From positions 2,642,593 through 2,706,592 of the forward strand of contig NW_006917097.1 of the NCBI RefSeq assembly GCF_000516985.1: a stretch of 64,000 nucleotides of DNA, in the 5' to 3' direction. Of this stretch, positions 18,901 to 52,866 are shown in pieces; position 1 is the first letter of the stretch, and each line of letters begins with the position of its first letter. This stretch comes from Pestalotiopsis fici W106-1 (Eukaryota > Ascomycota > Sordariomycetes > Amphisphaeriales > Sporocadaceae). The translations under genes and the position numbers were made by a program. The notes under the pieces were generated by a model. It was not told where the DNA came from. It made no database searches and saw only the letters and a program-made list of their open reading frames with translations.

Positions 18901-18981
18901 CCGCCAAATTGCTCCTAAATCCTGTTAACGGATCTGTCAAGCTTTCATTTGGCCACGAACCGGACTACCCCATCTGCGACG
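15907..18981. other. Gene-poor region
   Basis: About 3 kb with only short, domain-free frames on both strands. The start is the permease promoter; the end is the leader of the double-HET gene. An interrupted inverted repeat at 18580-18605 is listed separately. I saw no transposase or reverse transcriptase remnant. Confidence 0.5.
18580..18605. repeat. Interrupted inverted repeat with CCTAGGTA core
   Basis: ACCTAGGTAACC is followed after three bases by GGTTAC-TAGGT, an inverted copy with one base missing. It lies about 380 bp upstream of the double-HET start codon. A related perfect palindrome precedes the other HET gene (40516-40529). Confidence 0.6.
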
Positions 18982-27550: not shown

Positions 27551-28555
27551 ATGCTGCCATCGACGTATTTGCGTGGCCTTGTTGGCCTTTCAGCCGTTCA
27601 AATAGCCTATGGGCGACCTCATTCCATCAGAGGCGATACCGACCAAGCGATGGTAATACAATTAATACCAGAAGTTCCATCCCTTGAAAACCTCGCGATC
27701 CGTCGTAATGGAGATATCATCACCACATCTACCCGGTCTTCCTCTCTTTACCTCACTTCTCCACGCAAACAGTACGGGGCTGATGCTATTTTGCTTCACC
27801 AATCCTCGAATCTCAATGCTCTTCTCGGCATAGCAGAGTTGGAGGAAGATGTGTTTTACATTACGGGTGGTGCTGCTCTCACTATGCCCAATCCTTTCAA
27901 TGAGGTGTGGAAAGTGGACCTGCGTGGTCTTCAAATTTCTGCCAATGGTACAATTGTCCAACCACCTGCCATCGTTCTTGCTGGCAACGACAGCACCGGG
28001 GGCTTATATAATGGCATGACACATTTGGGCACCAACGACACGAATAATATTCTCTTGGCTGACTCCCTGCTGGGCACTGTCACACGTCTCGATGTTACGA
28101 CTGGGGAGTTTGCAGTAGTCAGCCAGGACCCGCTCCTCGCCACGCCCAATACAACTAACCTCGCGGTCGCTGTCAATGGAATTCACACTTACGGCAATTT
28201 TATATACTTTACCAACCTGAACCAGGGAATATTCGGCCGCATGCCGATATCGCTAGCTACTGGCGAGCAGACAGGCGCCGCAGAGATCCTTGCTACAGGA
28301 CTCTGGGTGGCTGACGACTTTGCGCTCTCCGTCGATGGTCAAAAGGCTTGGGTTGCTATGAACGGACCAGACGTCATCATCGAGGTTGATATCGTGGAAA
28401 AGACGAGCCGTGTTGCCTTCAACTCCAGTCTACTGGGCGCCGCCTCGTCAGTTGCCAAGGGCCGCGTTTGTCAAGATTTGCAATATTTATACGTCACCAC
28501 ATCACAGTCCAATGGCAACTCCACCATTGGCGGTATTGTCAGATTGCCTCTATAA
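27551..28555 (+). CDS. Secreted SMP-30/gluconolactonase-like six-bladed propeller protein
   Basis: Single exon, 334 aa from ATG 27551. The N-terminus MLPSTYLRGLVGLSAVQIAYG is a likely signal peptide. The body shows repeated blade strands such as PSLENLAIRRNGDIITTS, NNILLADSLLGTVTRLD and VADDFALSVDGQKAWVA, as in SMP-30/lactonase-type propellers, with many N-glycosylation sites. Several fungal relatives have no proven activity; lactone hydrolysis is only one option. It ends 333 bp from the end of the GH95 fucosidase gene (convergent). If the sugar is oxidised outside the cell it could open the lactone; otherwise it may bind another ligand. The metal ligands could not be assigned by eye. Confidence 0.78.
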   Translation: MLPSTYLRGLVGLSAVQIAYGRPHSIRGDTDQAMVIQLIPEVPSLENLAIRRNGDIITTSTRSSSLYLTSPRKQYGADAILLHQSSNLNALLGIAELEEDVFYITGGAALTMPNPFNEVWKVDLRGLQISANGTIVQPPAIVLAGNDSTGGLYNGMTHLGTNDTNNILLADSLLGTVTRLDVTTGEFAVVSQDPLLATPNTTNLAVAVNGIHTYGNFIYFTNLNQGIFGRMPISLATGEQTGAAEILATGLWVADDFALSVDGQKAWVAMNGPDVIIEVDIVEKTSRVAFNSSLLGAASSVAKGRVCQDLQYLYVTTSQSNGNSTIGGIVRLPL

Positions 28556-28888
28556 TATTTTGTTCGGCAATGGCATGTCTGGCCTGGAGTTACGGAGTAG
28601 CAGTCAACGACCATAAAGCCCTACTTTGTACTTGGGGATTCTATTCATCTAGTTTATGGTTATGGTACCAGTCTTCTCAGCATCAAGGATGACCCACGAA
28701 TCTGCTTGATCCCAATGGAAGTTTTACGTGGCGTGTTCCGGGCGTGTATTGGAATTCCTGAATAGTCGCAGCTTTGATGACAGTTGTTCAGATGAATGAA
28801 TTGCTTTAGACAACATTTGCCAATTAGCCTGGTCGCCTCCAAGAGGATTGTGCAGTTCTTTTTACCATACAAGCTAGAGTGAAAGGTT
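28556..28888. other. Convergent 3' spacer
   Basis: 333 bp between the 3' ends of the propeller and GH95 genes. Presumed polyadenylation regions; nothing else seen. Confidence 0.4.
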
Positions 28889-31438
28889 TTAAGGGTACAG
28901 CACATCTCCCTCAATATTCAGCAGGCGTACATTCGTAGCCAAATCCCGTGCGGTAACCTGATGGACGACACCGGCGTCGTCCCAGTCAAAATCAACGGAA
29001 CCCCCACCACGAATGCGCAGCCCCTGAACATTTCCACCAGCCCAGGCTGCGGGAATGGCGGGACCAAGAACTACTTCTCGAGTCCCGTCAAAGCTGCTCG
29101 ATACTGGTAGATCCACAGCCAACATGCTCAGCCCAGCTCCGACAAGGCCAAAATTGGCGTCAATCTGAAAAGCACCATATGGCTGTAAAGATCCTGGCGC
29201 ACCACTGGAAAAGGACAGACCGTTGGAGGCAAAATTTTCGTCAATCGTATAGCGGTATTCGTAATACGCACGCTCAGTGTTGTTCAACAAGGCCCAGCAA
29301 GCTGATCTCCAGGCCTTGGCCCAGCCCGGGTCCGAGTTCTCGAAGCCGGTACCACGGCTAGTAAGAGTGGTGTTGACGGCCGTCTGAATTGTCGAATTAC
29401 TATAACCGCATTGGAGCGAGTTGATGGACCAGCCAGGGTACCATCCCACAAGCTCGGAAATATGCCGGTGCTGGTCGTTTTTGTAGTCATTGTAGACAGA
29501 TTCAGGGACCTTCCACTCCTTGATCTGCCCCCAAGTACCGAAATGCAGACCCTTGTCGACAGACGCTAATAATGTCGTAATGTTGGCCAAGAATTCATTG
29601 TCATTATCGTTCGCGGCTGGAGCCCCAACAAGAACGATTTCAAACAATTGGTGAAGAAGTTGCTGCCAGTGTGTGCATCCAAAGGTCGCCGGTCCGTGCT
29701 CTGGGGATATACAGGGCACCACGACCAGCGAACTATCGTTGGAAAACTGATCGACCTGGAGCTGATTCAACCAAAACTCCGCTGCTCCTTTCAAGAGGGG
29801 CCAACCCTGTTCAGACCACCACTGAGAATCCTGCGAGTACTCGTAATTGTCCCAAACATGTTGCATCATCCAGGCCGGTGCAATAGCATAGTCTGCAGAC
29901 GTCTCATATGATTTCATTCTGCATGGCTGTTAGCGTCTTCGACTATTAGGTAGCAAGCATGCGCGCAAGCAAACCATAATGGCTTCCCCAGTGTGTCCGA
30001 AAATGTTCATTTCGTCATGAGTGACCCAACCGCTGGCTCCGTATAGAAGCTGAGCTGTTTCGGTACCGCGGGGAACCCAAGTATTTTCCATGTAATTCCA
30101 CACGCTGACAAGCAACTCGCCCAGCCCCGTCTGTTGTGCTGGCCACAGATTCATCTGCAAGTTTATATTTGCATGGTAATCGCCGGACCAAGCCGCGCTG
30201 TCAAGATTGGACCACACTCCCTGTAGGTTTGGCGGCAAGCTATTGTCACGCGAAGAACCGATCAAAAGATGTCGGCCATAATCAAACATGAGTTTCTCCA
30301 AATATGGGTCGCCTGAAGTCAGATTGGAGTTGTAATTGGTGAGGAGCAGATCAAGGCTGACACCAGAGGAGCCCTGCGTGTCGGGCAGACTGAGCAGAAA
30401 ACGGCTCTCGAAATTGCTATAGTCGGCAACATGGGCGGCGCGCAGCTCTTTTTCGGGAATTTGAATAGCTTTGGAAACCGTCTCGGCAACTAGAGGTGCC
30501 GGGTCAGCACCCTGAAAGCTATAATTGTACTCCCTGGTGCCCTTGGTCTGGTCGTAGTTGGTCCCCGCCCCTATAACAATGGTCAACGCTGAAGACGAGT
30601 TTCCCGGCACGACAAGTGTCCCGGTCTCATTATTGCAGGTACCCGGGGTGGAATTTTGCGCAATGATGTCCCACTTCATTCCAATCGGATTGCTATTCTG
30701 TGTATACCCCGTCAAACTGGCCGATTGGGAGTTGCACCCCAAGGTAAGTCCTCCTTGATTGCTGGAGACAATGTTTCCCAAGGCTATAGCTACCTGCGGC
30801 AGAAAGTCTGAAGATTCAAGATTGTAGACGCATACTTGATCTGGCAAAGTGCAATATACCGTCGAGGTGAAGTTGGCAACATCTGTAGAAAAGGAGGTCG
30901 TGTGAATGCCAGTTTTCAAATCTAGAGACCGGTTGAAGCTACTGAAATCGTCTCTGATGCCATCAATTGTGACCGACAGGTTTCCGGCAGCCTTGAAACT
31001 ACCATAGGCCGATGTGTCACCATGGAGCGCAGTATCGTCTGGATATTGTGAGCTTTGAATCGCTTTCGAACCGAGTCACATAAGCTCACTCGTTATTCCA
31101 GTTGACCAGGTCTCGGCACGGACTTCTGCAAGCACGTCTATCATACTTGTGTTGGGGTTTCCCCCATTATAAGTCTTCTTTGTTAGATTTTGGCCCATCA
31201 TTAGAAATTGCGGGAGGCAGAAGCTTACGGAAAGCTGGAATGGTCCACCAGACCAGAGGGTGTCAATATTCAGATTGAGCATCTCTTGGCCAGGTTGACC
31301 GAAAGGCATTGCACCAAGCCTTCCATTCCCAACGCAATATGCCTGGCGCATCACATCCGTGGAGACTGCTGGGCTGGTTGACCAGAGCGCCCCAGCTGCC
31401 GCCAGACGGGCAAAGAGGAGCAAGAAGACTTTCACCAT
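28889..31438 (-). CDS. Secreted GH95 alpha-L-fucosidase (or alpha-L-galactosidase)
   Basis: Exons (minus strand) 31438-31229, 31177-31090, 31038-29975 and 29926-28889 give 799 aa, the usual GH95 length. [19 protein letters not shown] is a signal peptide. Family marks in order: [37 protein letters not shown] (the NxN pair that binds the attacking water), [37 protein letters not shown] (general acid Glu), [13 protein letters not shown], and FQIDANFG with the conserved Asp. GH95 enzymes invert alpha-1,2-L-fucose (xyloglucan side chains, glycoprotein glycans) or alpha-L-galactose. The third intron (48 bp, gtttgc donor) is the least certain junction. Promoter side faces the 3' end of the FucP-like permease gene. 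Confidence 0.92.
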
Positions 31439-32741
31439 CCTGGAAAATAAATGACGGCGAGACAGATGGGGTGGTCATGGAGTCACGGTGGGGCCAATTT
31501 TGAAAGTTCTCATCAGTCTTTAGTATTTGGCCACAGCCACAATATGTTGGTATCTTGAAAGTGGCTAGCGACCCGCGACAACTGCTGATGATTTATCCGA
31601 CGGATTCGTTGGCAAGAAAAGGGCATTGCGAATTGTCCCTTGACTTGTTAGTACATAGGCATCGTCTCGGTGATCAATGTTGCTCAATCGCCTATCTGGT
31701 GATTATATCAAATTACGACTGCATGCATTATTGAGCAGTGGCTGCTACATGCAGCAAGTCTCAACGAGAAATGTCCTGCCTCCCAGCCCGGAGTATTGCA
31801 GCGGTACCTTGGCAATCAGTAGAAATTGAACATTGCCTATCAAGCGCCACGGACCGAAAACTATTCGATATTGCACGTAGGTGTTACCTGCAGCTCCGCA
31901 ACAAATTATTGGTTTCCTACATGTGTGCAAAGAACTGCAAATACCCGGTGTTATAGAATTGCACTTGGTATTTTTGGTTTGCCACCATTGGCGCGCAAAG
32001 GTCCCCGCACAGCACCCCGCCTGGAAGTAAAAGCCACCGCTACCGTAAGCTGGGGTGACCTCGGGATGCTGCACCTTAATAAATTCGCACAAGGTTACCC
32101 CAATTCCCCCCAATTTGTGTATGCCTATGAGGTGATACAAAGATTCACAGAGGATTAATTAGAATGGTAGTCTGTTCAAATCGGGCACTCCAATCATCCG
32201 TGTGTGGGTGTGGAAAGGCTGCATTCTGGGCGCGGAGGTGGTCGGTGGTCCCCTAAAACTTGCAATCCCCAATGTCCGATATGCACGGGGTACAGACAGA
32301 GCCTCCTTTAAGCGACGGGATTTCTGCGCAATAAGCCAGCCGTGACAATCTGGTCCGATTCGTGTGCTTTCATCTTGACCTCTTCCGATTCAAGGAACAT
32401 AATGTTCTGTGGCAAAAGCAGTCACACAGCAGCATTTGGATCAAACCTATTCGTGCAGCCACTATCCCTTCCTGGCATTGTGGAATTGAGTCGATGTGGG
32501 ATGGACTTTTCTCAAAACGCCGCACTGCTATGGATGATTGAAAGTGATGTAGAAAAAGATATTCCCGGCAGCGTATTCAAATACCTGAGGGTTCCAGATT
32601 GATATAGACGTATTGACAATACCAGCGCGTGCAGTTCATTGTAGCCATAACCGTCTGGGGTACTCTGTCAATGATCATTGACCCTTTATCGACGCAGAAT
32701 CTACCGAGATAACGAAATGTCCAGAACAGTGATGTTAGGCC
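31439..32741. promoter_or_regulatory. Upstream region of GH95 gene
   Basis: About 1.3 kb between the GH95 start and the permease 3' end. Short frames only. It must hold the GH95 promoter and the permease terminator. I looked for CGG-N7-CCG and found none. Confidence 0.4.
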
Positions 32742-35203: not shown

Positions 35204-36457
35204 ATGACGCAATGGGGCCAATATAGACCAATGTCATTCCCATCTCAGTCGCCTTCCTTACAACCAAGACAGGTGCAGCCACCCATTGTATATCTCGTCA
35301 TCAGTCACAGCGTGGCAATGGTCGATCGAATCGCTCGAATTCCAAACCTGGTGATGGGTGGTGCAGGCTTCAGCTACCAGCTTCATCCAGATCCCGAGTC
35401 TCTACCAATTCGGGAAATACTTCTTCGCGCCTTCGACTTGGGCCTTCGTGCTATTGATACCTCTCCCTATTATGAGCCATCGGAACAGCTATTAGGGGCA
35501 GCACTGTCTCATTCCGATATCAAGTCCAAGTATCCACGGAAGGATATCATACTCATGACAAAGGTCGGCCGGATCAAGGAGAGAGAATTCAACTATTCGC
35601 CATCATGGGTTCGCAAATCGGTGATGCGTTCACTAGACAGATTCCAAACAACGTACCTTGACGTTGTCTTCTGCCACGATGTCGAGTTTGTCACCATGAA
35701 AGAAGTCATGGGTGCTATAGAAGTGCTTCTGGAGTTTCAGCGCGCGGGCAAGATTATTCGCGTAGGAGTCTCGGGCTACGACATTGAGACTCTAGGTCAA
35801 ATAGCCACCATGGTGCGAGACCGCTACGGAAGACCGCTAGATATTATTCAGACTTGGGCGCAACTTACCCTACAAAACACCAAGGTCGAGTCATGCGGGC
35901 TTGACCTGTTCCAGGCGGCCGGAGTTGCATCTGTCTTGTGCTCTAGCCCGCTGGCAGTGGGACTCTTGCGCAACGGCGGCATTCCCACCGGGCGGACTGG
36001 CGACTGGCACCCAGCACCGCATGCATTGAGGGAGGTTGTGCAAATGGCAGCTGAATGGGTCGAGGAGCAGTCTGAATCCATGGCATCTGTTGCTTTGAGA
36101 TACGCCATTGCCAAATCGGTTTTGAACTGTCGTTCACACGTGGCTGTGTCAACGGTGGTGGGAGTCAGCACCATGGCCGAGCTGGAGGAAAATGTTGCCA
36201 CAGCTAAATCCATTCTCAAAGCCGTTACCGTGGATTCGTGCGCAGGGGGTCTGGGCGACTACACAGAGGTCGACGAGATTGCCTACCGGCGCGACCAGCC
36301 ATTGTACAATCATATCCAAGGTGCATTGGGGCATTGGCTTGATTACGATTTTGGTAGCACAAAAGTTGGATCGTCAAAGCAGCTGAAAGACGTCGGCATC
36401 ACAAATGGCAGCGATTCGATTGAATCAGTGAAGACATCGTCTGTAAGATTGGGTTGA
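35204..36457 (+). CDS. ARA2-type aldo/keto reductase, L-fucose / L-galactose / D-arabinose 1-dehydrogenase-like
   Basis: Single exon, 417 aa from the first in-frame ATG; a start at 35318 (379 aa) fits the conserved domain better, since homology begins at PNLVMGGAGFSYQ. It matches NAD-dependent arabinose/L-galactose dehydrogenases of the AKR superfamily: AIDTSPYY (catalytic Asp and Tyr), MTKVGRI (Lys), YLDVVFCHDVEFV (His), then VGVSGYDIETL, QTWAQLTLQN and VVGVSTMAELEENVATA. The enzyme oxidises the C1 hydroxyl of an aldose to the lactone in the cytosol. Yeast Ara2 also takes L-fucose and L-galactose, whose C2-C4 stereochemistry matches D-arabinose. It would be the first intracellular step after uptake by the divergent FucP-like permease. 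Confidence 0.9.
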   Translation: MTQWGQYRPMSFPSQSPSLQPRQVQPPIVYLVISHSVAMVDRIARIPNLVMGGAGFSYQLHPDPESLPIREILLRAFDLGLRAIDTSPYYEPSEQLLGAALSHSDIKSKYPRKDIILMTKVGRIKEREFNYSPSWVRKSVMRSLDRFQTTYLDVVFCHDVEFVTMKEVMGAIEVLLEFQRAGKIIRVGVSGYDIETLGQIATMVRDRYGRPLDIIQTWAQLTLQNTKVESCGLDLFQAAGVASVLCSSPLAVGLLRNGGIPTGRTGDWHPAPHALREVVQMAAEWVEEQSESMASVALRYAIAKSVLNCRSHVAVSTVVGVSTMAELEENVATAKSILKAVTVDSCAGGLGDYTEVDEIAYRRDQPLYNHIQGALGHWLDYDFGSTKVGSSKQLKDVGITNGSDSIESVKTSSVRLG

Positions 36458-37133
36458 TCGAAGGTATAGACATACACTATAGAAGGCCGAACACTTGGCG
36501 GAAGCGCAGAGTGACCTTGGTTGCTGTATCGGACATCCAGTCAGCTAAATAAAGTGCGCCACAAGGTCACAGATTAAGAAATCACAGCTAGAATGTAGAT
36601 ATTCCTCGCATCGATTGAATATATCGTTCTTAAATCTATCCATTGGACAAATAAAAGGCCGTATAGTCTTGGTTCGTATGTCGTGCAGTGGTAAATGGTA
36701 TTCGACTCCAATTGAGACAATGCGTGGCGCTGGCAAAAAGTCCCATCACCAACAACTATTGGTGGCTTAACACACCACCCACCCACGTGGCTAGAATGTG
36801 GAGGTGGCCCTTCCCCAACCCTAAGCCGCATTACACTCAACCCGCTTTAGGTAGACCCGACGCACCAAAACGTTAGCTAAGGCCGTACCTGGCAGAAATT
36901 GGGGATTTCCCCGCGTTTAGGTCCCTTGCTCCGTCATCGTCGTGGCTCGCCGACGGATAATAATAATAAATAGGCGGCACAATGCCTTCCTCTCCACAGC
37001 GCCATCAGCAGCAGCCCTATCTGGTATCCGCTGGCATGTAGCGAGGCCACTTTCTACTCTGGCACGGGTCAAGCAGCAAAGGGAGCGATCGCAAGCAGCC
37101 AACCAGATCCATCATAACAAGCGAGGAGCAGGC
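36458..37133. promoter_or_regulatory. Upstream region of XlnR/AraR-type regulator gene
   Basis: About 680 bp between the dehydrogenase stop and the regulator start, with GC-rich segments near 36780-36960. No exon or operator could be supported. Confidence 0.35.
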
Positions 37134-40041
37134 ATGGAGTCTACGGAGACGGGCCCCCAGTCAGCAGCAACTAAGCTACTGGTCGAACAGCCACCAGATC
37201 AACGTATGCCGCGGATGCGCAAGAGAACTGCTCGGGCTTGCGATCGCTGTAGCAGCCTTAGGGTGCGCTGCGATGGCAGCAAGCCATGGTAAGTTTTCAG
37301 CAATGTACCCTGCTCTTTTCCCTGCCTATTCAAATTTTTCTTCTTTTTTCGTCTCCATTTACTAGCCTTCCCGGCCGCTTGATCCGTACAAATGGAGTGT
37401 CTGCTCATTCATTTGGACTGTTTCTTTCAGCCGCCGTTGTCGAGGTAGGCATATACTCCAAACAGCCGTCTCTGTTTTTGCACGGCAGTGATTACCTGGG
37501 CGATTAACTTTCGACGGCGCGGTTTAGAATATGAGCAAGCCTGCTTTTACACCCGCACTATCGGGAAGAGAGGGCGCAAACCGCACTCGAGCTTTCAGAA
37601 CACGCTGCCGTCTCCTACATACCATAGCCCGAGTCAGGATTCTCCAGACAATACCACGAATCTTGACGAGGGAGAAGGGCACATCCCGGCTCAGCCTGCC
37701 TACCAAGAAGAATTCCACGTCATCACAGTTGCAGATCGTGGCAATACACAATGTCCCATCCAGTCCGATACTTGCAATCGACCGCAAAACGAATCATCCT
37801 TTTCACCTCTGGATTTAACTCCCGGCACCAGTCCCGAAACCTATACCAGTCTGGTGGCATCAAGTGACAGCAGTAATAATCCAGATGTCCCTGAACTATC
37901 GGTCTCTGGACTTCCAGGAGAAGTTCTTGTGCACACGAACAATGATGCAGTTCGCAGCATTCCTTTGGCCCAGCAGATGCCGGCTGGACATGCGCGACAA
38001 CTCACACCGCCGAAGGATTACTCAGGTAACGCACGGCCCAGCGACCTTCTGCTCTCCAGATTCAAATGCCTTCAACCAGTTCTCCCAATGCTACAAGGCA
38101 TCATCGACGAAAGTCTTGCCTGCAAGCTTCTCGAGTCATATTTCAGGGAACCAGGCCGGTCTTTATTCGAATGTGCATCGCCATATGTGCTGACACATGT
38201 ACTTCGTAAAGAATCAGTGCTGCGATCGGATAGTCCACGCCGCACAACCTGCGCATTGTTGGTCACGATTCTTTGGGCTGCTTCGCAGACTGCAGATGAC
38301 GACTTCTTCCTCGCTCCCGGCCGGAAAGCAACAGTATGCGAGGAACTGAGGAAATTGATGATTTCACTCATTCACCAACGCGATCATGACTCCTGGGATA
38401 GGGACACTTGTGAGAGCCTCTATGACTTCAATGTATGATAACTAGGTGATCAGGTGTGCTGATATGCATTAGCCGGCATGTACGTGAGGAACCAAGACTC
38501 TGATACGGGCACCACTGGTCAGAATTGGCAATCAAACAACACTTTGCGGCGGCCGGCCTCCCAGGAAGCACCTCCCGTCCCATCTGTTGACGACGTACTC
38601 ACTCTCTTACTTCTAACAATCGTTGTCTCCGGGGGGGACTTCAAGGCTGATTGTTTTCGCTGGTGGCATAAAGCCTTGCGTCTCTCTCGCCTCATGGGCC
38701 TAAATCGCGAGGATGGCTTTGCAAATGCCTTGATGTCCTGCTGCACAGGAGGCACCAATTGCGCGTGCCGCTCCTGCGATGCCATTCGGTCGCGTATTAG
38801 CGTGCCCGAAGTTCAAGAAGAGAGGCGACGCGTGTTCTGGCTCATGTTTTGTCTGGATCGACACTTGGCGCTGTCACTCAACTCACCAGTGCACATTCTC
38901 GATCATGATTGCCTTATATATCGCCCAAGGCCAGATGACGAATGGGAAGCCCTTGACCCAAACTCTTGCGCGGACTATGGCCTGAGAGGCAGGGTGTTAG
39001 GACCACCCACGACCATTTCAGGAACGAGCTTTTGTGACTACTTTTTACCTTTGATGGCAATTCTAGGTGATGTGATACATTTGCATCGACGTAAGTCTCA
39101 TCCACGCTTCTCTGGAGCCCGGCAAAGCAATGGGCTTGATGCAGATACTGCAACTGTCGAAGGTGTGCTTGATGATTGCGAGAGAAGCATTGACAATCTG
39201 GCACGACTGTACGGCGTAGATACTCTCGATGGGGTTCCAATTGCAATGTCAAGCGGTCATATGACATCGTCTCCCTTGGGCATATCGCAGCAAGGATTGC
39301 CTGGAGCGCCACCGCTCACCCCTCTGCCTCAGCATCCAGTTTCCTCTATAGGTCCACCTTTCGCACCGTCCCATGACCTGCCAACAGATCTTCGTCCTGG
39401 TTCTCCGGACCAGCCCACGAATATCTCCGAGGCCAGAAAGCGGTCGAGTGAAGCAGCACACCGTAGCCAGGCGCGGCTCGTCACCGTGTACAGCAAATTC
39501 ATTCTGCATGTGCTGCATGTTCTCTTGCACGGCAAATGGGATCCCATTTCAATGTTGGAGAATGCCGACGGCTGGATCTCCTCGGTCGGGTTTGTCAAGT
39601 GCGCATCGCACTCAATTGCCGCCTCTGAGGCCGTCTCGGAGATATTGGCCTGTGATCCGGAGCTGGCTTTCATGCCGTATCTCTTTGGTATCTATTTACT
39701 GCATGGAAGTTTTATTTTATTGCTCTTTGCAGACCGTATGCCACAAATCGGACTAAATGAGTCGGTGGAGCGAGCATGTGAAATAATCATCCGTGCTCAC
39801 GAGGTTTGTGTCGTAACGCTTAGCACCCAGTTCCAGGTACGTCTGACATGGCAAACATGCCTAGTAAGACGGTGATGCTAACATTCATTTCCCACAGATA
39901 CGATTCCGAAAGGTGCTTCGATCTACCTTGTATAGTGTTCGCAGTGCGGGAGAACCGTCTACAGCGGAAGAGAGTGCGTCTCGTCTGCGGGTATTGTCCT
40001 TGTATAGATGGAGTGGAGGGTTCACAGGACTTGCGGCATAG
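37134..40041 (+). CDS. Zn2Cys6 transcription factor of the XlnR/AraR family
   Basis: Exons 37134-37288, 37431-37444, 37528-38409, 38473-39836 and 39898-40041 give 852 aa. The zinc cluster is assembled from three exons, including a 14-bp microexon: ACDRCSSLRVRCDGSKPC, then RRCREYEQAC, i.e. C-x2-C-x6-C-x5-C-x2-C-x6-C. The order and neighbouring residues match XlnR (sugar-catabolism regulator). The fungal_trans domain runs over residues about 300-480. The C-terminus CEIIIRAHEVCVVTLSTQFQ, then FRKVLRSTL and SLYRWSGGFTGLA, is also XlnR/AraR-like. Such regulators switch on plant-polysaccharide or pentose genes when a sugar is present. It lies inside the sugar block, so pathway-specific control is likely. 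The exon 3/4 junction is the least certain. Confidence 0.88.
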
Positions 40042-43992: not shown

Positions 43993-46900
43993 ATGGCCAA
44001 CCTGAATGGAACGTCTAGTTCGGAGGAATTTGCGGGCGATGAATTCTCAAACAATCTCTTCAGCGACCTCGCTCCTCTCCTCACGCTGTTTGGTGAACAG
44101 GTGACGAAACAATTCTTGAGCATGAGGCAAGTAGAAACCAAACTATGCTGATCATACACTGTGGTCCTGTTGCTAATGCTGCAGAATTTAGTACGTGATC
44201 TAACTGCTCTATTACCATTGACTTGTGCTCACCGCTGGCAGGTATGGGCTGGGCAGATAATATTTTACTGGCCATGGGACCCCTAGGAATCATGACTATT
44301 GTCGTCAGCGCAATCCGTGTTGGTCGTGTCAAGATGCTTAAAGCCATGGTTGGAAGGTAAAGCGCCACCCCTCTGCTTTAGAGGCTAGGTCAGTTGACTC
44401 ACATATGTTGGTAGGGCGCGAGGAAGTCAGTCAGATGCAGAGCAAGAACTTCTCTCTTCCACATCCGAGGACGTTTGCGAACTATGGAGTGGCCACGAAA
44501 TTGTCCGTGTCATGGGTCAACCAGCGGGCATGAAGACGTTGATCATTGTTGACGACACGGTTCATGATATCAAGTCTGGGGTGCGGAGACGTATTATTGA
44601 AGATTCTAATCCTGAGGATGATGCTCTCGACTCTCTGACTGACGCTGCCCCCAACCTAGCTCTCAATGTTCGAAACTCCACTGCTCCGTCTTGGGAGCTA
44701 TGATCTTGGCCGCAGTGGGAATACTCCTCCAAGTCATCGCGGTTGTGATACCTGGGGTAGCGACATACGTCTGGCAATGGCCCAAGGCCGGTGTCAAGGT
44801 TCAGAACTATGGGTATCCTTGTTTTGTGATTGGGACCACTCTTGTAGTTCTCGGCACAATGGTTTGTGGGCATGTCATTGAAGGAGTTACTACTGAGCAC
44901 AAGTTCACAAAGCACCCCGATGCGAGTAAGATGCAAGTGGTACGGCTTCAGCGGGCCTCTACTGTCAGCGGCCAGCATTTCTCGTCATACGCAATATTCA
45001 ACGATGAAGACAACCAAAGCATTCGAACATCTCGTTTGAACACTGCTGATTTTAGGTATGACCATTGCGCATACCCTCATTACGATACTTTGGCATAATT
45101 GGAATTTTTCCTATTCCGGCACGCCTCACATGACACCTATCTAGCTACCAACTGACAAACGCATTAGCACTTTGGCGGCCACTTCTTCACTTCTCTCTGT
45201 CGTGGGCTTCATAATACAATTCGTCGGTCTCAGAGCGCTTCACTGGTCGGCTACTATTATTCAACTTGGTATCACAATCATAATGACAGGAATTCGCGCC
45301 TGGGTCAGGAGAGGACTCGCCTCTGACCCTAAAACGAACGTCACTCTAGACGGGCACGAAATGGCTTGGCTGACTCTTCACATTCTCCCGAAAGACCGTT
45401 ATACTCGCCGACATCCACGTCGATCGAGTGAACGAGAGGAGCCTAAACCAACGAGTGATGCACCAGCACCGGACTCTGAGACCGACGTCACGCCATTGCA
45501 GAATTCGCGTGGATCATTAGAGGTCGCCGAAGCAACATCCCAAGGCGATCCAGAGCTGGAAAGACAACAGCAATTCTGGGACATACCATTTGATAAGACT
45601 TTCCAGAGTGCCGAGCAGATTATCTGGGAGCCAATTATGGGTTATGATTCTTATCGAGAAACAGCATGGAATGTGGTAGAATTCACTGAAAAACAAACAC
45701 TCAGTGAGATTTCCGTTGGTTTGGGAACGAAAACAGAGCACCTTTATACGTTCCAACAACTGTTTCGCCCACTCCAATTCGATAACTTTCTACATGTAGA
45801 ACCGTATGATCGCTATGAAGCGGCTGCTGATGGCGCGCTGGAGTTATACCAGCAGATTGCCAATATCATGCCGGCAAGCAATGCAGTGGTTAGTGCAGCC
45901 AACTCGTTGGCAACTGTGGTGGAGCGAGTTATGAAAATCGTGTGCGACGTCAAGGCGATAGAGTGGAAGACAAAAGACATCCCAATCGCCGAAACAAATG
46001 CCGACAAGGATAGTTCAGACTGGATAGCATCAGGCAACCGACTTTCTGATGACATATATTGGGGAGTTACCATCTCAACCCGTATGCCTTCGGAAGAAAC
46101 GGCACGGACCAGCAAGCTCTATTTCCGTACGAAAAGGGTAAATGAAGACCCCAATGCTTCGATTGCAAGGATTGGGACTGTCCCCAATGTTTCGACTGCA
46201 AAGACTGGCACGTTCCGATGGCAGTTTCAAGACCGAGAATCAATCATTGGCGTGTTGTCACTATGGTTATATTCAATGGCCAGAAGACAGAGCTCGATCG
46301 AAAAGTTCAATGAGTTTCTCGTCCGGGTTAGAAAAGAACGTTTCAACTATGTTGAGTCCGGAAGAATTGGGCGTATCGTTGCCACGAATTCGTTAGGAGA
46401 TTTCTCAGATGTTTGGCATCCCTTGTCGAAGTGGCTAGGCGTCCCGATAACAGAATTGCCATTACCGAATGGTCAGAACCGTGTCCAAAGCTTGATTTCA
46501 GAGACCCGTTCAGACATGACTTGGTTTCTGGGAATGTTCCTGTCACCCATGGCTGAGTAAGAATCCCGATATTAGAGTGGTTTTCAACAACTTCTAAGTG
46601 GTATATATGTAGCTAATGGGCTATCGCAGACCGAGCACGCAACCGAAAACGTCTGGCCAAAATGAAACTTCCTCTCAGAGGGGCACTTTGGTTGTCCAAA
46701 CACGTGATGATTCGAGCCTCGAGATTCAGTTTGCACAAGAGCTTTTCTCCTTGTTTATACTTGCCTTGGCAAAAAACATCAGCAAAGTGCTGGGAAACAC
46801 GGTCTATGACGCGGTCAGACATAATGTGTCCCGCGAACTGGGTCAACCTTCAATATCCATGCAGAATTCTGTCTTCAATGCGATCGCGGAAGAGGTTGTC

Positions 46901-47020
46901 AACAACGGACTAGCCCACGACACAACGGAAGCTTATTCGTTGATCATACCGGCTTTTCACAAATTGGATCTCCTACCTACCCCAGGAACACAACTTGAAA
47001 CTGCATCATCTACACAATAG
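43993..47020 (+). pseudogene. Degraded multi-exon membrane protein of the fungal ankyrin-associated N-terminal type
   Basis: Visible exons: 43993-44126, 44242-44356, 44415-45055, 45168-46556, 46630-47020; the coding remainder is about 880 residues. The N-terminus DLAPLLTLFGEQVTKQF, then GWADNILLAMGPLGI, DAEQELLSSTSEDVCELW and IPGVATYVWQWPKAG, matches the leader of large fungal ankyrin-repeat proteins of unknown function, with several membrane helices. Two defects: exon 1 has a GC donor (gcaagt) and joins exon 2 one base out of frame, and a single-base frameshift sits near 44701, where SWEL runs into TGA while the next helix continues one frame over. The first could be avoided by a 10-bp microexon (44173-44182 region). 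The last two exons are intact, and no ankyrin repeats follow. Sequencing error is the main alternative. Confidence 0.6.
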
Positions 47021-47599
47021 GTGGGACAGAATCCAACAGCCCATGCGGACAGCGAGTGAGCCAAACTAAATAAGGCTTGACATTTTAAGCCTCTGTGGAT
47101 TCTCGGCGTGATGCCGAGAGTCAGGATTCAGTCTATGGCAGTACAATAGAAACACATACCTAGACATCCCCAAGTGTTCCACAATTCCAGAAGTTGCAGT
47201 ACCCCTGTTACAACATATTCGTAGCCATGGCATTTCGTGATCCATAGTGCGTGCCTTCTTTAATGGTAGCCTTTTCAGGATGCCTGAATGAGTCGCCTTG
47301 GCGAAGTCTTAGCAGACTTGATGCGAATTGATGCGGGGTTTTAGGGAGCTTCACAGTTAACTCGGACCCCTCCAACAGCTCCATATCCACTATGAAATAG
47401 GCTTTTACAACAATTGCCCGCTCGGCCAAAGACCGAGCCCCTTCGATGAGGAGCCATGGGATATTGTGAAAAGACGTCACTGTCCTATTCATGACAGTTT
47501 GGTTTTTATACATGAGCAGTATTGCAGCATTTCCCTGATTGAGATGAGTCTTCACCTTCACACTCGTAGTGTTTTTCTTGTTTAAAGTGTGTCGCAAAC
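47021..47599. promoter_or_regulatory. Upstream region of LDH2-family gene
   Basis: About 580 bp. Holds the CGG-N7-CCG palindrome at 47104. A 132-residue minus-strand frame (47208-47606) covers most of it but has no recognisable domain and overlaps the LDH2 start codon. Confidence 0.4.
47104..47116. promoter_or_regulatory. CGG-N7-CCG palindrome upstream of LDH2-family gene
   Basis: TCTCGGCGTGATGCCGAGA is a near-perfect dyad with 7-base arms (TCTCGGC / GCCGAGA) around GTGAT. The CGG and CCG half-sites lie seven bases apart, a layout used by Zn2Cys6 dimers. It matches two sites in the RraA/lactonase promoter. Confidence 0.5.
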
Positions 47600-48735
47600 A
47601 TGACATCCCAAGCCCGCTATTATGTTAAGCCGACGGACGCCCAGACGTTTGCGCAGGCCGTCTTAAGCAAAGCCGGTTTGCCTCGGGATCACGCCAAGCT
47701 CATGGCCGATTGCCTTGTCCAGGCTGATGTACGAGGAGTAGTAAGTAGAAATTCTTTACAATTCCTCGAGGACGTCAACGCCTGACATGATTGTAGGATA
47801 CTCATGGCCTGGCCAGACTGCAGCAGTACATGGACCGTGTCTCGACTTCGCTCGTCAAGGCTCAGCCAGAACTCAAATTTTTAGAGAAGACGCCGGTCGC
47901 TGCGCATCTGGATGGCGACAATGGCTTTGGCTTCATTGTAGCGTCCAAGGCCATGGAAGATGCCATCCGGCGTGCTGAGACCTATGGCATTGGCATCGTC
48001 ACGGCCAAACATTCAAACCACTTTGGTATGGGCGCTACCTATGTGCTTCAAGCTCTGGAAAAGGGCATGATTTCGCTAGTGTTCACAAATTCAGCCAAGC
48101 AAATGCCGCCCTTTGGAGGCAAAGACACTCTGCTGGGCATCTCCCCATTCGCCGCAGGTGCACCAAGTAAGAACGAGGTACCGTACGTTCTCGACATGGC
48201 TCCTTCGGTAGTAGCCAAGGGCAAGATACGACGAGCAGCACGTCGCGGCGAAAAGATTCCTCTAGGCTGGGCATACGACAAGGATGGAAAGCCCACGGAG
48301 GACGCCAATGAAGCCTTGAATGGTTCCATGGCACCCATTGGCGGTCCCAAGGGGTCGGGTATCGCCATCCTGATGGACGTCATGTCTGGAGTCTTGTCTG
48401 GCGCCGCCTTTGGGGGCGAGGTTGGCGATCAGTACAAGGAGGCTCGCCCACAGAATGTGGGACACACTTTCATTGCAATCAAGCCAGACATCTTCATGTC
48501 CTCGGAGGAATTCCGCTCGCGCATGGATACGCTGGTGCAGCGTGTTCACGGTGTGACGCCAGCTGATGGCTTCAAAGAGGTCCTGTTCCCTGGGGAACCC
48601 GAACACCGACTCAGCGTCCAGAGATCTAGGGAAGGCATCCCTTTTGCGGATGCTGAAAAGGACATGTTTGAAGAAATTGCAAAGAAGTATGGCGTTGAAC
48701 CTCTGCCAATGTCAACCAGTGCCTACGCATTGTGA
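47600..48735 (+). CDS. LDH2-family (malate/lactate/2-oxo acid) NAD(P)-dependent dehydrogenase
   Basis: Exons 47600-47740 and 47797-48735 give 359 aa. The junction rebuilds ADVRGVDTHGLARLQQYMDRV, the family's signature with catalytic His. Further marks are AKHSNHFGMGATY, VFTNSAKQMPPFGGKDTLLG, YVLDMAPS and GGPKGSGIAILMDVMSGVLSGAAFG. This family (PF02615) is unrelated to classic lactate dehydrogenase and includes malate, sulfolactate, ureidoglycolate and 2,3-diketogulonate reductases. Cytosolic. It is the first of four enzyme genes to 52.9 kb, so it may oxidise or reduce a 2-oxo/2-hydroxy acid from the sugar, for example an alpha-hydroxy aldonate or lactate. The exact substrate cannot be named. 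Confidence 0.9.
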
Positions 48736-49134
48736 GTGTACATGATTTAGACGGAACAGTAAGAGTAGAGCTATGAATTCGCGAAGAATTGATGTTGAAT
48801 ATTACATCTTAACAGCTCATACCTAGCTCATAGCCACCAATGATGATTGTGGATTTCCAGTGTTGATTGCGCAGCTCACGCTTATGTTGTCCCAAACCAT
48901 TGCCAGTCATGGTGCTAAGATGCTAAAAGGCTCATTGCATGTCGCGCATATTGCTATGCATTTCCTCTTGTGTATGATGAGAATGGAATGAAGTCGTAAA
49001 CCATACTTGGCCACCGCCACAACGCAAGATATGATGCCAGTTCAGGATCTACATTTGAACTCCGAATATTCTCTTCCCGAATCTTATTTGCGCGCAGTCT
49101 AGTACCGTACAGGCTGGATGAAATCATCCTCAAT
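48736..49134. other. Convergent 3' spacer
   Basis: About 400 bp between the 3' ends of the LDH2-family and RraA-like genes; no gene seen. Confidence 0.4.
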
Positions 49135-50040
49135 CTATTTCTTCCCACGAAACTTGGCAAAAGCTTCCTGCACCGACATTCCCTCTTTGATGGCTTCAGC
49201 GCACTTCGCATCTGCATTCGCTATGGCTGGTATCGCATCAAGTACTTGCTCAGCCAAGCCAGCAGGCAGGCACACCACGCCGTCCTGATCAGCAATGATG
49301 AAATCACCCGGTTTAATGACGGCCTCATGTATCGAAGATTGCAGGGACACGGGCATATTGAGCTCAGACGGGAAGCATACAGCGCCGCCGGCAGTGGTAC
49401 CGACACAGCGTGCAAAGACCTCGAGTATACAAGTTAGCATGTATGTAGTTTGAGTCGCTTGTGCGCGTATCCGAGGAGTGTGAGAGAGTCTGGACAACGA
49501 ACCGGGAATTCAATATCTTGGTGTTCTTGTAGATCCCGTAGTCTGCCGTCAATGATTACGCCTGCCGCATCCAGATACTTCGCCCTCAGAGACATGAGGC
49601 CCCCGTAGCAAGCATTAATATGCGGTGCAGGCTGGGAGATGAAGACCACTGCGCCTTTTGGAATCTGGTCAATCTAAACATGTAGACTGAGTGAGTTGGT
49701 GTTTCCTATGCATATCTGCTCAGAGTAAAACCTACATAGTTGCCCTGTATTTTGGGCGCATTTTGGTCAGACTTGGGCGCAAATTTGACCGTCATGGCTG
49801 GTCCGACAATCCTCGTGGGCCCATTCTGGAATTGAGGCGAATACATGGTCAAGCCTTCAAGAAAGCCGCCGTGTACATGGCCAAGCTTTGAGAGTCCATC
49901 TGCAACCTGATTGTTGCATTGGTCAGATTCGATTGCAATGGCAATGCGTTGAAGTGAATCGGGGAACTGCTTAGCTTACTTACATCGCAGCTGGACCACT
50001 TTTGTAGTCTTTCAACAATGGATGACGTAGCAGAAGTCAT
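49135..50040 (-). CDS. RraA-like protein, putative 4-hydroxy-2-oxoacid aldolase/lyase
   Basis: Exons (minus strand) 50040-49984, 49906-49736, 49673-49503 and 49419-49135 give 227 aa. Marks of the RraA/HMG aldolase family: SSCDVADGLSKLG at the start, IVGPAMTVKF, GAVVFISQ, CYGGLMSLRAKYLDAAGVIIDGRLRD (Arg-Asp of the metal/substrate site), FPVFARCVGTT and VKPGDFIIAD-QDGVVCLP-like sequence. Fungal RraA relatives are not RNase inhibitors; characterised ones split 4-hydroxy-4-methyl-2-oxoglutarate or decarboxylate oxaloacetate with Mg2+. A 2-keto-3-deoxy acid from fucose has the same 4-hydroxy-2-oxo unit, so retro-aldol cleavage to pyruvate and lactaldehyde is chemically reasonable (inference). The third donor (gttcgt) is weak. 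Divergent from the lactonase. Confidence 0.88.
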
Positions 50041-50224
50041 GATGGAATGCCTCAAGATCCCGATTGATTATTGTATACCTCGTCTGTTGCAATGATTGAC
50101 ATACAGCGACAACTATTATGCCGACACTCGCACAGTCTATAGAGGTCTGGTCTGGGCAGCCCAATGACGGATGTGGTCCCACAGCATCTCCAGAGCGTGC
50201 CCACGGCGTAAATTAGGCGCTGGC

Positions 50225-50237
50225 CGGCGGTAGGCCG
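50225..50237. promoter_or_regulatory. CGG-N7-CCG site 1 in RraA/lactonase promoter
   Basis: CGGCGGTAGGCCG, flanked by GCC and AGCC. Same half-site spacing as the LDH2 upstream site. Confidence 0.5.
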
Positions 50238-50254
50238 AGCCAAATTGGAACTCT

Positions 50255-50267
50255 CGGTATTTGGCCG
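50255..50267. promoter_or_regulatory. CGG-N7-CCG site 2 in RraA/lactonase promoter
   Basis: CGGTATTTGGCCG, preceded by CTCT and followed by ACC. It starts exactly 30 bp after site 1, about three helical turns, so two dimers could bind the same face. Confidence 0.5.
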
Positions 50268-50392
50268 ACCACTAGCGGCAGCACCTTGGTTCAACCACCA
50301 CAATTGTATTGTGTTGGCACATTAGAACTGCTTGGCAGCGTGCATTCTAGGAAAATGAAGATCGAAAATTGTTTGCGCCTGTGGGGCTGGCT

Positions 50393-51382
50393 ATGTTAAT
50401 CCGCTTCATATCAAAATTATTCGAGAACAATCCTGACAGACCTGTCAGACAATCAATGTCTTATCCCCAGAAGCCAGTACCGAGAGGAGCTTGGGACACT
50501 CATCACCACATATTCGAACCACATCGATTTCCCTTTGCTAAAGGACGACATTTCACCCCGTCCACTGCAAGTCTCCAGCAATTGAAAGAATTTGAAAGAT
50601 CAATTGGAGTGGATCATGTGTGCATCGCCCATGGACTGTCGTACGGACCTGATTGCACCTCGCTCTTATACTACATAGAGCAGTTTAATGGAACCGCCCG
50701 TGGGATATGTGTTCTGGATTGCGCTACAGTGACGGACCAACAATTGGATCAATACCATTCTGCTGGAGTTCGCAGTGTGCGCCTCGATTTCTTTCGGGCA
50801 CAAGCCATGAATGATGTGGAAAAGCAGGTCTCGTTGATCCACGAAACCGCCAACAGATTGATCAAATGGGGTGCACACAGTAAAGCTTGGGGTATTCAAA
50901 TCCAGCAACCCAAATTATGTTATTGGAACAGGCTACGTGAAGTAGCTGCCAGTCTTGCCTTCCCACTCGTCCTGGACCACATGGGTCTCTTCAAGGCGGC
51001 CAGTATGGCACCAGCCGGCTCGACTCCCGTCACGCAACAAGCAGAGTGGCAAGACTTTATGGGAGCTCTGCGCGACGGAAACCTATGGATCAAGATCTCT
51101 GCCCCGTATCGCAATTCCCGGGCGGCTCCTCACTTTGAGGACTTGTACGATATTGTCACCCAACTCGTGAGAGCACGCCCTGATCGAGTCGTGTGGGGGA
51201 GCGACTGGCCGCATACTCAACGACATGAGGACAGGAGACCTGAGAATATCGGCAAGCAGGAGCCTTTTTTGGTGGTTGACAATCAGAGCTGGATAGTGTC
51301 TCTTAGCACGTGGTTGAGCGAAGATGAATGGCAGGCTCTATGGGTTGAGAACCCTCGCAAGTTATATGACTATTATTCATAG
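50393..51382 (+). CDS. COG3618-type amidohydrolase, candidate L-fuconolactonase
   Basis: Single exon, 329 aa from ATG 50393; ATG 50456 (308 aa) is an equally good start just ahead of the conserved domain. GAWDTHHHIFEPHRFPF holds the H-x-H metal site; LVLDHMGLFK and VVWGSDWPHTQRH carry the later metal His and the catalytic Asp. The family hydrolyses lactones; bacterial L-fucono-1,5-lactonase and related sugar lactonases belong here. In context it would open the lactone made by the ARA2-type dehydrogenase. It shares a 352-bp promoter with the RraA-like gene. It is a distant paralog of the enzyme at 12933, with little identity outside motifs. Confidence 0.88.
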   Translation: MLIRFISKLFENNPDRPVRQSMSYPQKPVPRGAWDTHHHIFEPHRFPFAKGRHFTPSTASLQQLKEFERSIGVDHVCIAHGLSYGPDCTSLLYYIEQFNGTARGICVLDCATVTDQQLDQYHSAGVRSVRLDFFRAQAMNDVEKQVSLIHETANRLIKWGAHSKAWGIQIQQPKLCYWNRLREVAASLAFPLVLDHMGLFKAASMAPAGSTPVTQQAEWQDFMGALRDGNLWIKISAPYRNSRAAPHFEDLYDIVTQLVRARPDRVVWGSDWPHTQRHEDRRPENIGKQEPFLVVDNQSWIVSLSTWLSEDEWQALWVENPRKLYDYYS

Positions 51383-51861
51383 GAGCCACAAACTAGAACC
51401 AAGACCAGACGAAAATATCTTGTATTTTATCCGGATTACTCTTTCGTAGATGACCAATTTAAGCGTAGAGAATAATTTAAGTAGCATCACTGAATCAAGG
51501 TGTGCGCTTGTGTAGTCTGTCGACCTTGGAGGCTTGTAGACTATCTGGTGGACGCTGAGCCTTCCCAAAAGGGGATTTCAGGGTAGACGTCAATGCTGCT
51601 TGTATACTGCGCAGGTAAACAATACTAAAATAAAACCCACGAGACTCAAAAGAACTTTTCATGAAGGAGACTTACAAACTTGGCAACGACAGTCTGACCA
51701 TCATCTCGCTTCGGCGTTTTGGCCGAACTAGAGCCACCAGGTATTCCTCGGCCTCGGACCGCACAGGTTGCAGCGAATGCCCTCATGGCAGAGTTGTACA
51801 TGAATGCACAAGCATCACGAACCAGAAATCTCGGACTTGTATTTTGCAGTTTGCAGTAATC
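51383..51861. promoter_or_regulatory. Promoter of class II aldolase gene
   Basis: About 480 bp between the lactonase stop and the aldolase start. The frame upstream of the ATG is open from 51661, so an earlier non-ATG region is translated in silico but not supported. Contains the dyad at 51712. Confidence 0.45.
51712..51725. promoter_or_regulatory. CGG-N8-CCG dyad upstream of class II aldolase
   Basis: TTCGGCGTTTTGGCCGAA has perfect 6-base arms (TTCGGC / GCCGAA) around a 6-base spacer. It is like the N7 sites but one base longer. It lies about 140 bp before the ATG. Confidence 0.4.
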
Positions 51862-52866
51862 ATGTCTTTCCCTCAGACCAATCGCACATGGCAGATCCTC
51901 GACGCTGCTGCCAAGGCCGGTTATGCAGTTGGGGCCTTCAACTGGTTAGTATCTAACCAGTCCAAGCGACGCGGGATGGTGTTTCGTGTCACATGTTCAC
52001 AAGGCTGACAATCGGTCCGCAGTTACAATGACGATGGCGTAATCGCCGTCATTCGCGCGGCCGAAGCCTCAAAATCGCCAGCCATCATCCAGCTGTTTCC
52101 GTGGACCATGAGATTTCAAGGCCCAGAGTTTGTCAAGTACGTGATCAATGCAGCGCACGCCGCCAGCGTTCCTATTGCCGTCCATCTCGATCATTGCATC
52201 GAGCCAGCCGACGTGGAAGCTGCGCTGAATCTCCCATTTGACTCGATCATGGTCGATGCATCAATACATGACCCGGAGGAGAACATTCGGCAGTGCGCAG
52301 CCATTGTGCAGCGGGCAAACGCCAAAGGGATCTCCATCGAGGCGGAAATGGGCCGGATCGAGGGCGGCGAGGATGGCTTGCCGCAAGTGGACTTGGACAC
52401 AATCATGACGCATCCGGACGGTGCTCAAGATTTTGCGCAAAAGACTGGCGTGCAGTTCTTGGCCCCCGCATTTGGTAATATCCACGGTCATTATGGACCA
52501 GGCGGTCCCGAGAAATACTGGAATCTTTCCCTGTAAGCAACCATCCCGGGCGTATTGCGCGTTTCGGCGTCGCTAAGTCTGCATGTTTCGTATAGGCTCG
52601 AAAAAGTAAGGGATGCGGTTCCTGGTATACCTCTGGTGCTGCATGGTACCCATGGCGTATCCAACGACCTCTTTCATGCTGCCCGGAGGCACGGAATGGT
52701 CAAGATTAACCTCAATCGCACAGTCCGCGACGAGTACACCAATTTTGTGGCCGAGAATGCCGGAAAACTGGAGTTGACTGTTCTCAAGATGAAGGCGGTG
52801 GAGGTGTACACAAAGTCGATCTCGAGGGCTATGAAGGGTATCCTAGGATCTGCTGGCAAGTCATGA
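51862..52866 (+). CDS. Class II (Zn-dependent) ketose-bisphosphate-type aldolase
   Basis: Exons 51862-51944, 52023-52532 and 52596-52866 give 287 aa. Marks of PF01116: AGYAVGAFNCYNDDGV at the first junction, VHLDHC (zinc His and catalytic Asp), SIMVDAS, IEAEMGRIEGGEDG, FGNIHGHYGPGGP (zinc His), LVLHGTHGV (third zinc His; the usual HGGSG reads HGTHG) and KINLNR. These enzymes split fructose-, tagatose- or other ketose bisphosphates by retro-aldol chemistry through a zinc enolate. The altered phosphate-binding Gly loop (HGTHG) suggests a different, perhaps non-phosphorylated, substrate. It is the last gene of the sugar block and could be a 2-keto-3-deoxy acid aldolase (inference). Confidence 0.9.

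What the first reader, a model, noticed from the sequence alone, without database searches (positions are those of the whole stretch)
27551..52866. Candidate fungal cluster for L-fucose (or L-galactose) breakdown by an oxidative route
Seen: GH95 fucosidase (secreted), FucP-type permease, ARA2-type aldose 1-dehydrogenase, XlnR/AraR-type regulator, COG3618 lactonase, LDH2-family dehydrogenase, RraA-like aldolase/lyase and class II aldolase, within about 25 kb. Known: bacteria such as Xanthomonas use dehydrogenase, lactonase, dehydratase and aldolase steps for L-fucose; yeast Ara2 accepts L-fucose. Inference: this fungus has a dedicated non-phosphorylating route from glycan to pyruvate. I do not know of a characterised fungal L-fucose cluster.
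Basis: partly seen in the sequence, partly recalled or inferred. Interest (0 to 1): 0.9.

Follow-up and report, generated by a model that had tools for sequence, protein, structure and literature searches.

The report
Two adjacent fungal sugar-breakdown gene clusters
The eight genes are real, but they are best read as two neighbouring sets: a fungal L-fucose uptake-and-control cluster of a kind described in 2025, and a separate set of enzymes that probably turns another, unknown lactone into pyruvate.

Summary
Observation confirmed: all eight genes are present with open, spliced models. The host is Pestalotiopsis fici W106-1. Interpretation partly supported.

Left set (GH95, FucP, ARA2-type AKR, regulator; 28.9-40.0 kb): the regulator groups with Trichoderma FUR1-like proteins (46-47% identity), not the genome's own XlnR (35%), and has FUR1-type I/S residues. 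In T. reesei FUR1 is needed for growth on L-fucose, and fur1 neighbourhoods with fucosidase and permease genes are reported for two other fungi (PMC12370193). FUR1 core sites lie 159 and 178 bp upstream of GH95 and the regulator. An L-fuconate-dehydratase-family gene lies on another contig. A new member of a known kind.

Right set (LDH2, RraA, COG3618, class II aldolase; 47.6-52.9 kb): 7.6 kb away. COG3618 is nearest LigI in the PDB. LDH2 and COG3618 share 15 contig lengths in other assemblies; FUR1-like proteins share none with either. Of 80 bacterial LDH2 loci, 11 have COG3618 within 3 kb and 31 an HpcH aldolase. Most likely an independent lactone-to-pyruvate module with unknown substrate.

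The parts
28889..31438 (-). GH95 alpha-L-fucosidase-type hydrolase, 4 exons, 798 aa; one of four GH95 loci found in the genome
   Evidence: (383 bits)
31597..31603 (+). FUR1 core site CCGACGG, 159 bp upstream of the GH95 start; CCGTCGGATAA on the gene strand
   Evidence: motif from PMC12370193
32742..34418 (-). FucP-type L-fucose/H+ symporter, 5 exons, 467 aa
   Evidence: L-fucose-proton symporter 3o7q, E 1.6e-50
35318..36457 (+). ARA2-type aldo-keto reductase; candidate L-fucose 1-dehydrogenase
   Evidence: (8k1i, then L-galactose dehydrogenases)
36950..36956 (+). FUR1 core site CCGACGG, 178 bp upstream of the regulator start, AT-rich 3' flank
37134..40041 (+). Zn2Cys6 regulator, FUR1 orthologue (XlnR/XYR1 paralogue), 5 exons, 852 aa
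40789..43222 (+). HET-domain gene lying between the two sets (extent from open frames, not a finished model)
44398..47020 (+). gene of unknown function between the two sets; no Pfam match to its main frame (extent approximate)
47600..48735 (+). LDH2-family dehydrogenase, PFICI_10442, 2 exons, 359 aa
49135..50040 (-). RraA-like class II pyruvate aldolase / oxaloacetate decarboxylase candidate, 4 exons; G-x20-R-D-x2-E present
50393..51382 (+). COG3618 amidohydrolase, LigI-like lactonase
51862..52866 (+). class II (FBA-type) aldolase, 3 exons, 287 aa, one of several paralogues

Best explanation
Two functional sets lie side by side. (1) A FUR1-type L-fucose cluster: a secreted GH95 enzyme releases L-fucose, FucP imports it with protons, the ARA2-type AKR oxidises it to L-fuconolactone, and the FUR1 orthologue activates the genes through CCGACGG sites. 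The lactone opens spontaneously or by an unidentified lactonase; L-fuconate is then dehydrated by an unlinked L-fuconate-dehydratase-family enzyme and cleaved by an unlinked DHDPS-family aldolase. (2) An independent lactone-to-pyruvate module: COG3618 opens a lactone of unknown identity, LDH2 oxidises the 2-hydroxy acid to a 2-oxo acid, and RraA (perhaps also the FBA-type enzyme) splits it into pyruvate and an aldehyde or oxo acid. Shown here: gene structures, families, FUR1 relationship, site positions, contig-sharing patterns. Inferred: every reaction and all regulation in this species.
For: Regulator: 46.9% identity over 620 aa to a Trichoderma atroviride homologue against 35.3% over 586 aa to the genome's own XlnR; I/S where own XlnR has V/A; the Trichoderma homologue P0046 has the I at residue 758, one from the published I757. 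[quoted passage not shown] Core sites 159 and 178 bp upstream of GH95 and the regulator, the only two of 8 within 1 kb upstream of any of the eight genes; the 11-mer they share occurs 31 times in 51.7 Mb. Dehydratase-family gene on C12: 426 bits to L-fuconate dehydratase, 458 to ENOSF1, 495 to the uncharacterised 4ip4. Twelve DHDPS-family matches, none in the window. Separateness: 16 shared contig lengths between COG3618 and LDH2 rows (15 besides this genome), 0 between 93 FUR1-like rows and either. Bacteria: of 80 LDH2 loci, 13 hold a COG3618 relative above 80 bits, 31 an HpcH aldolase relative, 9 both; none has a FucP or GH95 match at 1e-4. COG3618: LigI first in the PDB. An RraA-COG3618 pair also lies on C1 among other genes.
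Against: The two sets are only 7.6 kb apart here, and a lactonase is just what the left set lacks. The FUR1 sequence itself was not in hand, only Trichoderma homologues. T. reesei uses an SDR (FDH1), not an AKR, for step 1. A. [quoted passage not shown] Core sites are not more frequent in the window than chance (8 vs mean 5.13; 13 of 100 shuffles reach 8), the 11-mer is not enriched genome-wide (31 vs 41 for the reversed control), no site lies between FucP and the AKR, and one lies inside the LDH2 coding sequence. The linkage test uses the length of a cluster's longest contig as a stand-in for the contig; in 4 of 13 species LDH2 and COG3618 differ, and 5 of the 9 that agree are on contigs of 0.7 Mb or more. 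RraA and FBA linkage in other fungi was not tested. No background set was run for how often HpcH lies near any LDH2 gene.
Confidence: 0.72

Rival explanations
1. One cluster: COG3618 is the L-fuconolactonase, LDH2 a 2-keto-3-deoxy-L-fuconate dehydrogenase, RraA or the FBA-type enzyme the aldolase.
For: Same 25 kb; the left set lacks a lactonase; a known L-fucono-1,5-lactonase is a COG3618 protein (title in a reference list).
Confidence: 0.13
2. The left set is tuned to D-arabinose or L-galactose rather than L-fucose, with GH95 acting as an alpha-L-galactosidase.
For: The best PDB match of GH95 is 4ufc, an alpha-L-galactosidase; the A. [quoted passage not shown] the AKR matches L-galactose dehydrogenases.
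Against: The only PDB matches of FucP are L-fucose-proton symporters, and fucP is its best NCBIfam model, ahead of gluP and NagP; T. reesei delta-fur1 grows normally on D-arabinose and L-galactose. The His/Thr residue near the catalytic Asn pair is His here and Thr in the three other GH95 loci, but it is not a reliable marker.
Confidence: 0.12
3. Chance neighbourhood on the left as well: generic carbohydrate genes beside an XlnR-family regulator.
For: GH95 and FucP both have paralogues elsewhere in the genome.
Against: The same gene classes adjoin fur1 orthologues in other fungi; core sites lie upstream of GH95 and the regulator.
Confidence: 0.03

Closest known systems
FUR1 / FDH1 L-fucose system of Trichoderma reesei and fur1 neighbourhoods of Fusarium oxysporum and Metarhizium robertsii (PMC12370193)
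   Same: FUR1-type regulator; fucosidase and permease genes nearby; CCGACGG upstream of some genes; candidate dehydratase and aldolase encoded elsewhere
   Different: The gene beside the regulator is an AKR, not the SDR FDH1; function not tested in P. fici
Bacterial non-phosphorylating L-fucose route (dehydrogenase, COG3618 fuconolactonase, fuconate dehydratase, then aldolase or dehydrogenase plus hydrolase)
   Same: Overall logic of oxidation first
   Different: None of the eight genes is a dehydratase; the COG3618 protein here is nearest LigI
Bacterial HpcH/HpaI aldolase - COG3618 - LDH2 gene groups (e.g. L066, L068, L075)
   Same: LDH2 51-56% identical and COG3618 29-35% identical in the 11 loci where they lie within 3 kb; a class II pyruvate aldolase nearby in 9 loci
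   Different: HpcH fold in place of RraA; ABC transport genes in L075; only weak RraA matches (20-62 bits, 7 of 80 loci) and no FBA match
LigI / LigK of the protocatechuate 4,5-cleavage pathway
   Same: COG3618 lactonase and RraA-family aldolase in one pathway (pathway recalled)
   Different: Low scores (LigK model 78 bits vs cut-off 304.5); ring-cleavage genes were not searched for

Membership tests
FUR1-type L-fucose cluster | Regulator orthologous to FUR1 rather than XYR1/XlnR | tested here: met
   46-47% to three Trichoderma homologues, 35% to own XlnR; I/S vs V/A. FUR1 itself was not in hand.
FUR1-type L-fucose cluster | alpha-L-fucosidase and L-fucose permease genes beside it | tested here: met
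   (by family; substrate not assayed)
FUR1-type L-fucose cluster | NAD(P)-dependent oxidoreductase gene of the AKR or SDR kind beside fur1 | tested here: met
   an AKR; the paper names two InterPro classes, whose identity as AKR and SDR is recalled
FUR1-type L-fucose cluster | CCGACGG sites upstream of target genes | tested here: inconclusive
   one each upstream of GH95 and the regulator, none between FucP and the AKR; window total not above chance
FUR1-type L-fucose cluster | Growth on L-fucose depends on the regulator | not testable with these tools
   needs a deletion strain
L-fucono-1,5-lactonase (COG3618) | Closest solved relative is an L-fuconolactonase | tested here: not met
   LigI best; nothing labelled L-fuconolactonase up to E 10. 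That such chains are in the PDB copy is recalled, not checked.
LigI 2-pyrone-4,6-dicarboxylate lactonase | High similarity to LigI | tested here: inconclusive
   87 bits; His and Asp positions conserved in A1, residue roles recalled
RraA-type class II pyruvate aldolase | G-x20-R-D-x2-E/D motif (recalled) | tested here: met
   residues 101-126
L-sulfolactate dehydrogenase | NCBIfam cut-off | tested here: not met
   278 vs 500 bits

The most novel reading that the evidence does not exclude
In this fungus the right-hand module has been placed beside the FUR1 cluster and runs L-fucose without any dehydratase: COG3618 opens L-fuconolactone, LDH2 oxidises C2 of L-fuconate, and the RraA or FBA-type aldolase splits 2-keto-L-fuconate into hydroxypyruvate and L-lactaldehyde. 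That would be an undescribed route, built from a lactonase/LDH2 pair shared with bacteria whose HpcH aldolase was replaced by an RraA-fold one.
Probability: 0.06. Interest if true: 0.75.

Novelty: new member of a known kind. Interest (0 to 1): 0.4.

Why it matters
The left half puts the recently described FUR1 system in the order Amphisphaeriales and offers an AKR as a candidate alternative first enzyme, which a single enzyme assay could test. The right half points to a catabolic module shared by ascomycetes and alphaproteobacteria in which the aldolase appears to have been exchanged between unrelated folds; the one search made for it found no description, so its substrate is an open and testable question.

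Tried and rejected
Gallate / protocatechuate 4,5-cleavage for the right set: LigI-LigK resemblance suggested it, but the scores are far below the family cut-offs. The A. niger gallate paper (PMC10512348, passages) reports a hitherto unknown pathway in which 17 ring-cleavage genes are dispensable; the word aldolase does not occur in it. Galactarate catabolism: the seven genes chosen for deletion in A. niger (PMC5153877, passages) are not of the right-set families. GH95 His/Thr residue as a marker for fucose against galactose: looked good, dropped because two papers say it is not decisive. A Pseudogymnoascus protein (P0082) joins a FUR1/XlnR-like part to a GH29 fucosidase domain; its regulator part has V/A and is ambiguous between FUR1 and XlnR, so it was not used as evidence. 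Of the other homologues read, P0065 has L/S and P0087 (XlnR-like) V/A; P0001, P0004, P0032, P0035 and P0046 have I/S. A regex tally over all 93 hits was badly anchored (25 gave I/S; Trichoderma rows were misread) and was not used. Enrichment of the 11-mer: none (31 sites, reversed control 41); the 11-mer was also chosen after seeing the two sites. First splice trials by a script missed most GH95 introns and were replaced by hand-chosen sites.

Full report
Host and genes. The LDH2 model matches PFICI_10442 of Pestalotiopsis fici W106-1 at 100% over its full length, on a contig of 3,552,968 bases, the length of the contig that holds the window. The span also holds a HET gene and a gene whose main frame has no Pfam match, between 40.0 and 47.6 kb.

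Left set. The regulator search gave 93 homologues (only the 7,996 candidates sharing most words were scored). Eight of them, the window protein and one open frame of the genome's own XlnR were compared. The window protein is 69% identical to a Pestalotiopsis homologue, 50% to one from Fusarium oxysporum and 46-47% to three Trichoderma ones over 572-620 aa, but 35% over 586 aa to own XlnR. At the two positions changed in the constitutively active FUR1 strain (I757, S760; XYR1 V821, A824) it has I and S, own XlnR V and A. PMC12370193 (abstract and outline, results, discussion and passages read) shows that FUR1 is needed for growth on L-fucose in T. reesei, binds CCGACGG, is needed for induction of four GH95 genes, and lies near fucosidase and permease genes in F. 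oxysporum and M. robertsii. It adds that genes of InterPro classes IPR020471 and IPR002347 are often beside fur1; that the first is the aldo-keto reductase class is recalled.

FUR1 sites. The exact core occurs 8 times in the window, not above chance (mean 5.13, 13 of 100 shuffles reach 8). Only two lie within 1 kb upstream of any of the eight genes: 159 bp before GH95 and 178 bp before the regulator. The 2,878 bp of left-set intergenic DNA should hold 0.23 sites at the shuffled rate (0.36 at the observed rate), so two is suggestive only (Poisson 0.023 or 0.051). Both continue as CCGWCGGATAA, which occurs 31 times in 51.7 Mb against 41 for the reversed control; this longer form was noticed after the fact, and none of the 31 lies at the three other GH95 loci.

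Missing steps. The PF13378 search gave six matches, five over the cut-off, none in the window. The one on C12 is in the L-fuconate dehydratase / ENOSF1 family (426 and 458 bits; its best match, 495 bits, is the uncharacterised 4ip4). Of the others, two pass the galactonate dehydratase cut-off, one falls just short of the L-rhamnonate dehydratase cut-off (390.7 vs 393), and one is glucarate-dehydratase-like well below the cut-off. Twelve DHDPS-family matches exist, none in the window. So the downstream steps can be met by unlinked genes, as proposed for T. reesei; which DHDPS gene would serve was not determined.

Right set. COG3618: a PDB search gives LigI first (E 9e-24); a 20-sequence profile gives three LigI sequences, 4i6k, 2ffi and 4mup, then four weak matches up to E 10. 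RraA: nearest YER010C; the metal/pyruvate motif (recalled) is intact. A second RraA-COG3618 pair lies on C1 beside a carrier-like frame and a secreted lactonase-like frame (these two labels by eye).

Linkage in other fungi. Contig length was used as a fingerprint. Searches list the best 120 of 688 COG3618 and of 4,118 LDH2 homologues. One search used 76 COG3618 rows (43 lower rows and P0102, which has no contig, left out), 93 LDH2 rows (27 lower rows left out) and all 93 regulator rows; one search added the 70 rows left out, P0102 apart, with the same result. COG3618 and LDH2 share 16 lengths, one being this genome and one (2981) doubtful because the sources differ. Several contigs are short (9.7, 12.9, 14.6, 20.2, 25.7, 71 and 73 kb), and in Cylindrodendrum and Neophaeococcomyces the gene numbers differ by three. 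Of 13 named species with both rows, 9 share a length (5 of these on contigs of 0.7 Mb or more, where sharing says little); Thozetella, Fusarium nematophilum, Niveomyces and Neopestalotiopsis do not. The regulator shares none with either. Of five species with both a regulator row and a COG3618 row (Thozetella, Dactylonectria macrodidyma, Diaporthe amygdali, Colletotrichum chrysophilum, Halenospora varia), none share. The length shown is that of the longest contig of a cluster, so misses are possible.

Bacterial counterpart. A scan with a 10-sequence LDH2 alignment gave 137 relatives, of which the best 80 loci were kept. Thirteen hold a COG3618 relative above 80 bits (11 of them within 3 kb on the same strand), 31 an HpcH/HpaI relative above 60 bits anywhere in the locus and on either strand, 9 both. 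Seven loci gave RraA matches of 20-62 bits, one an AKR match, none FBA, FucP or GH95. In L075 the order is HpcH, COG3618, an SsuA-type binding protein, LDH2. No background rate for HpcH near other genes was measured. RraA-family proteins are likely class II pyruvate aldolases, and a cited title calls the HMG/CHA aldolase evolutionarily convergent with HpaI (PMC5065237, passages), which is why I read the module as lactone, hydroxy acid, oxo acid, pyruvate.

Literature limits. Seven paper searches were made. That the right set is undescribed rests alone; one search found one paper holding both Pestalotiopsis fici and fucose (listing only, not read). PMC10481521 (passages) reported in 2023 finding no fungal homologues of L-fucose dehydrogenase or L-fuconolactonase.

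Noticed in passing
27551-28555 (+): Protein at the left edge of the finding with a signal-like N-terminus (by eye); no Pfam or NCBIfam match at 1e-3.
   Followed up: partly
12977-13951 (+): A second Amidohydro_2 gene in the same window (107 bits), outside the finding.
   Followed up: no
18919-21573 (+): Large HET-domain gene (130 bits), in addition to the HET gene inside the finding.
   Followed up: no
55837-58938 (+): Animal haem peroxidase domain protein (102 bits), possibly a fatty-acid oxygenase of the Ppo kind (recalled).
   Followed up: no
L049 (C1:2598000-2607900): Second RraA-COG3618 pair in the genome, of another COG3618 clade (37% to the window copy).
   Followed up: partly
C14:245165-246790, C3:2456818-2458120, C11:478002-479387: Further FucP-like genes, 55-71%, 48-51% and 30-40% identical to the window copy by segment.
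   Followed up: no
L050 and L051 (C10, C6): Two pairs of galactonate-dehydratase-like and DHDPS-type genes.
   Followed up: partly
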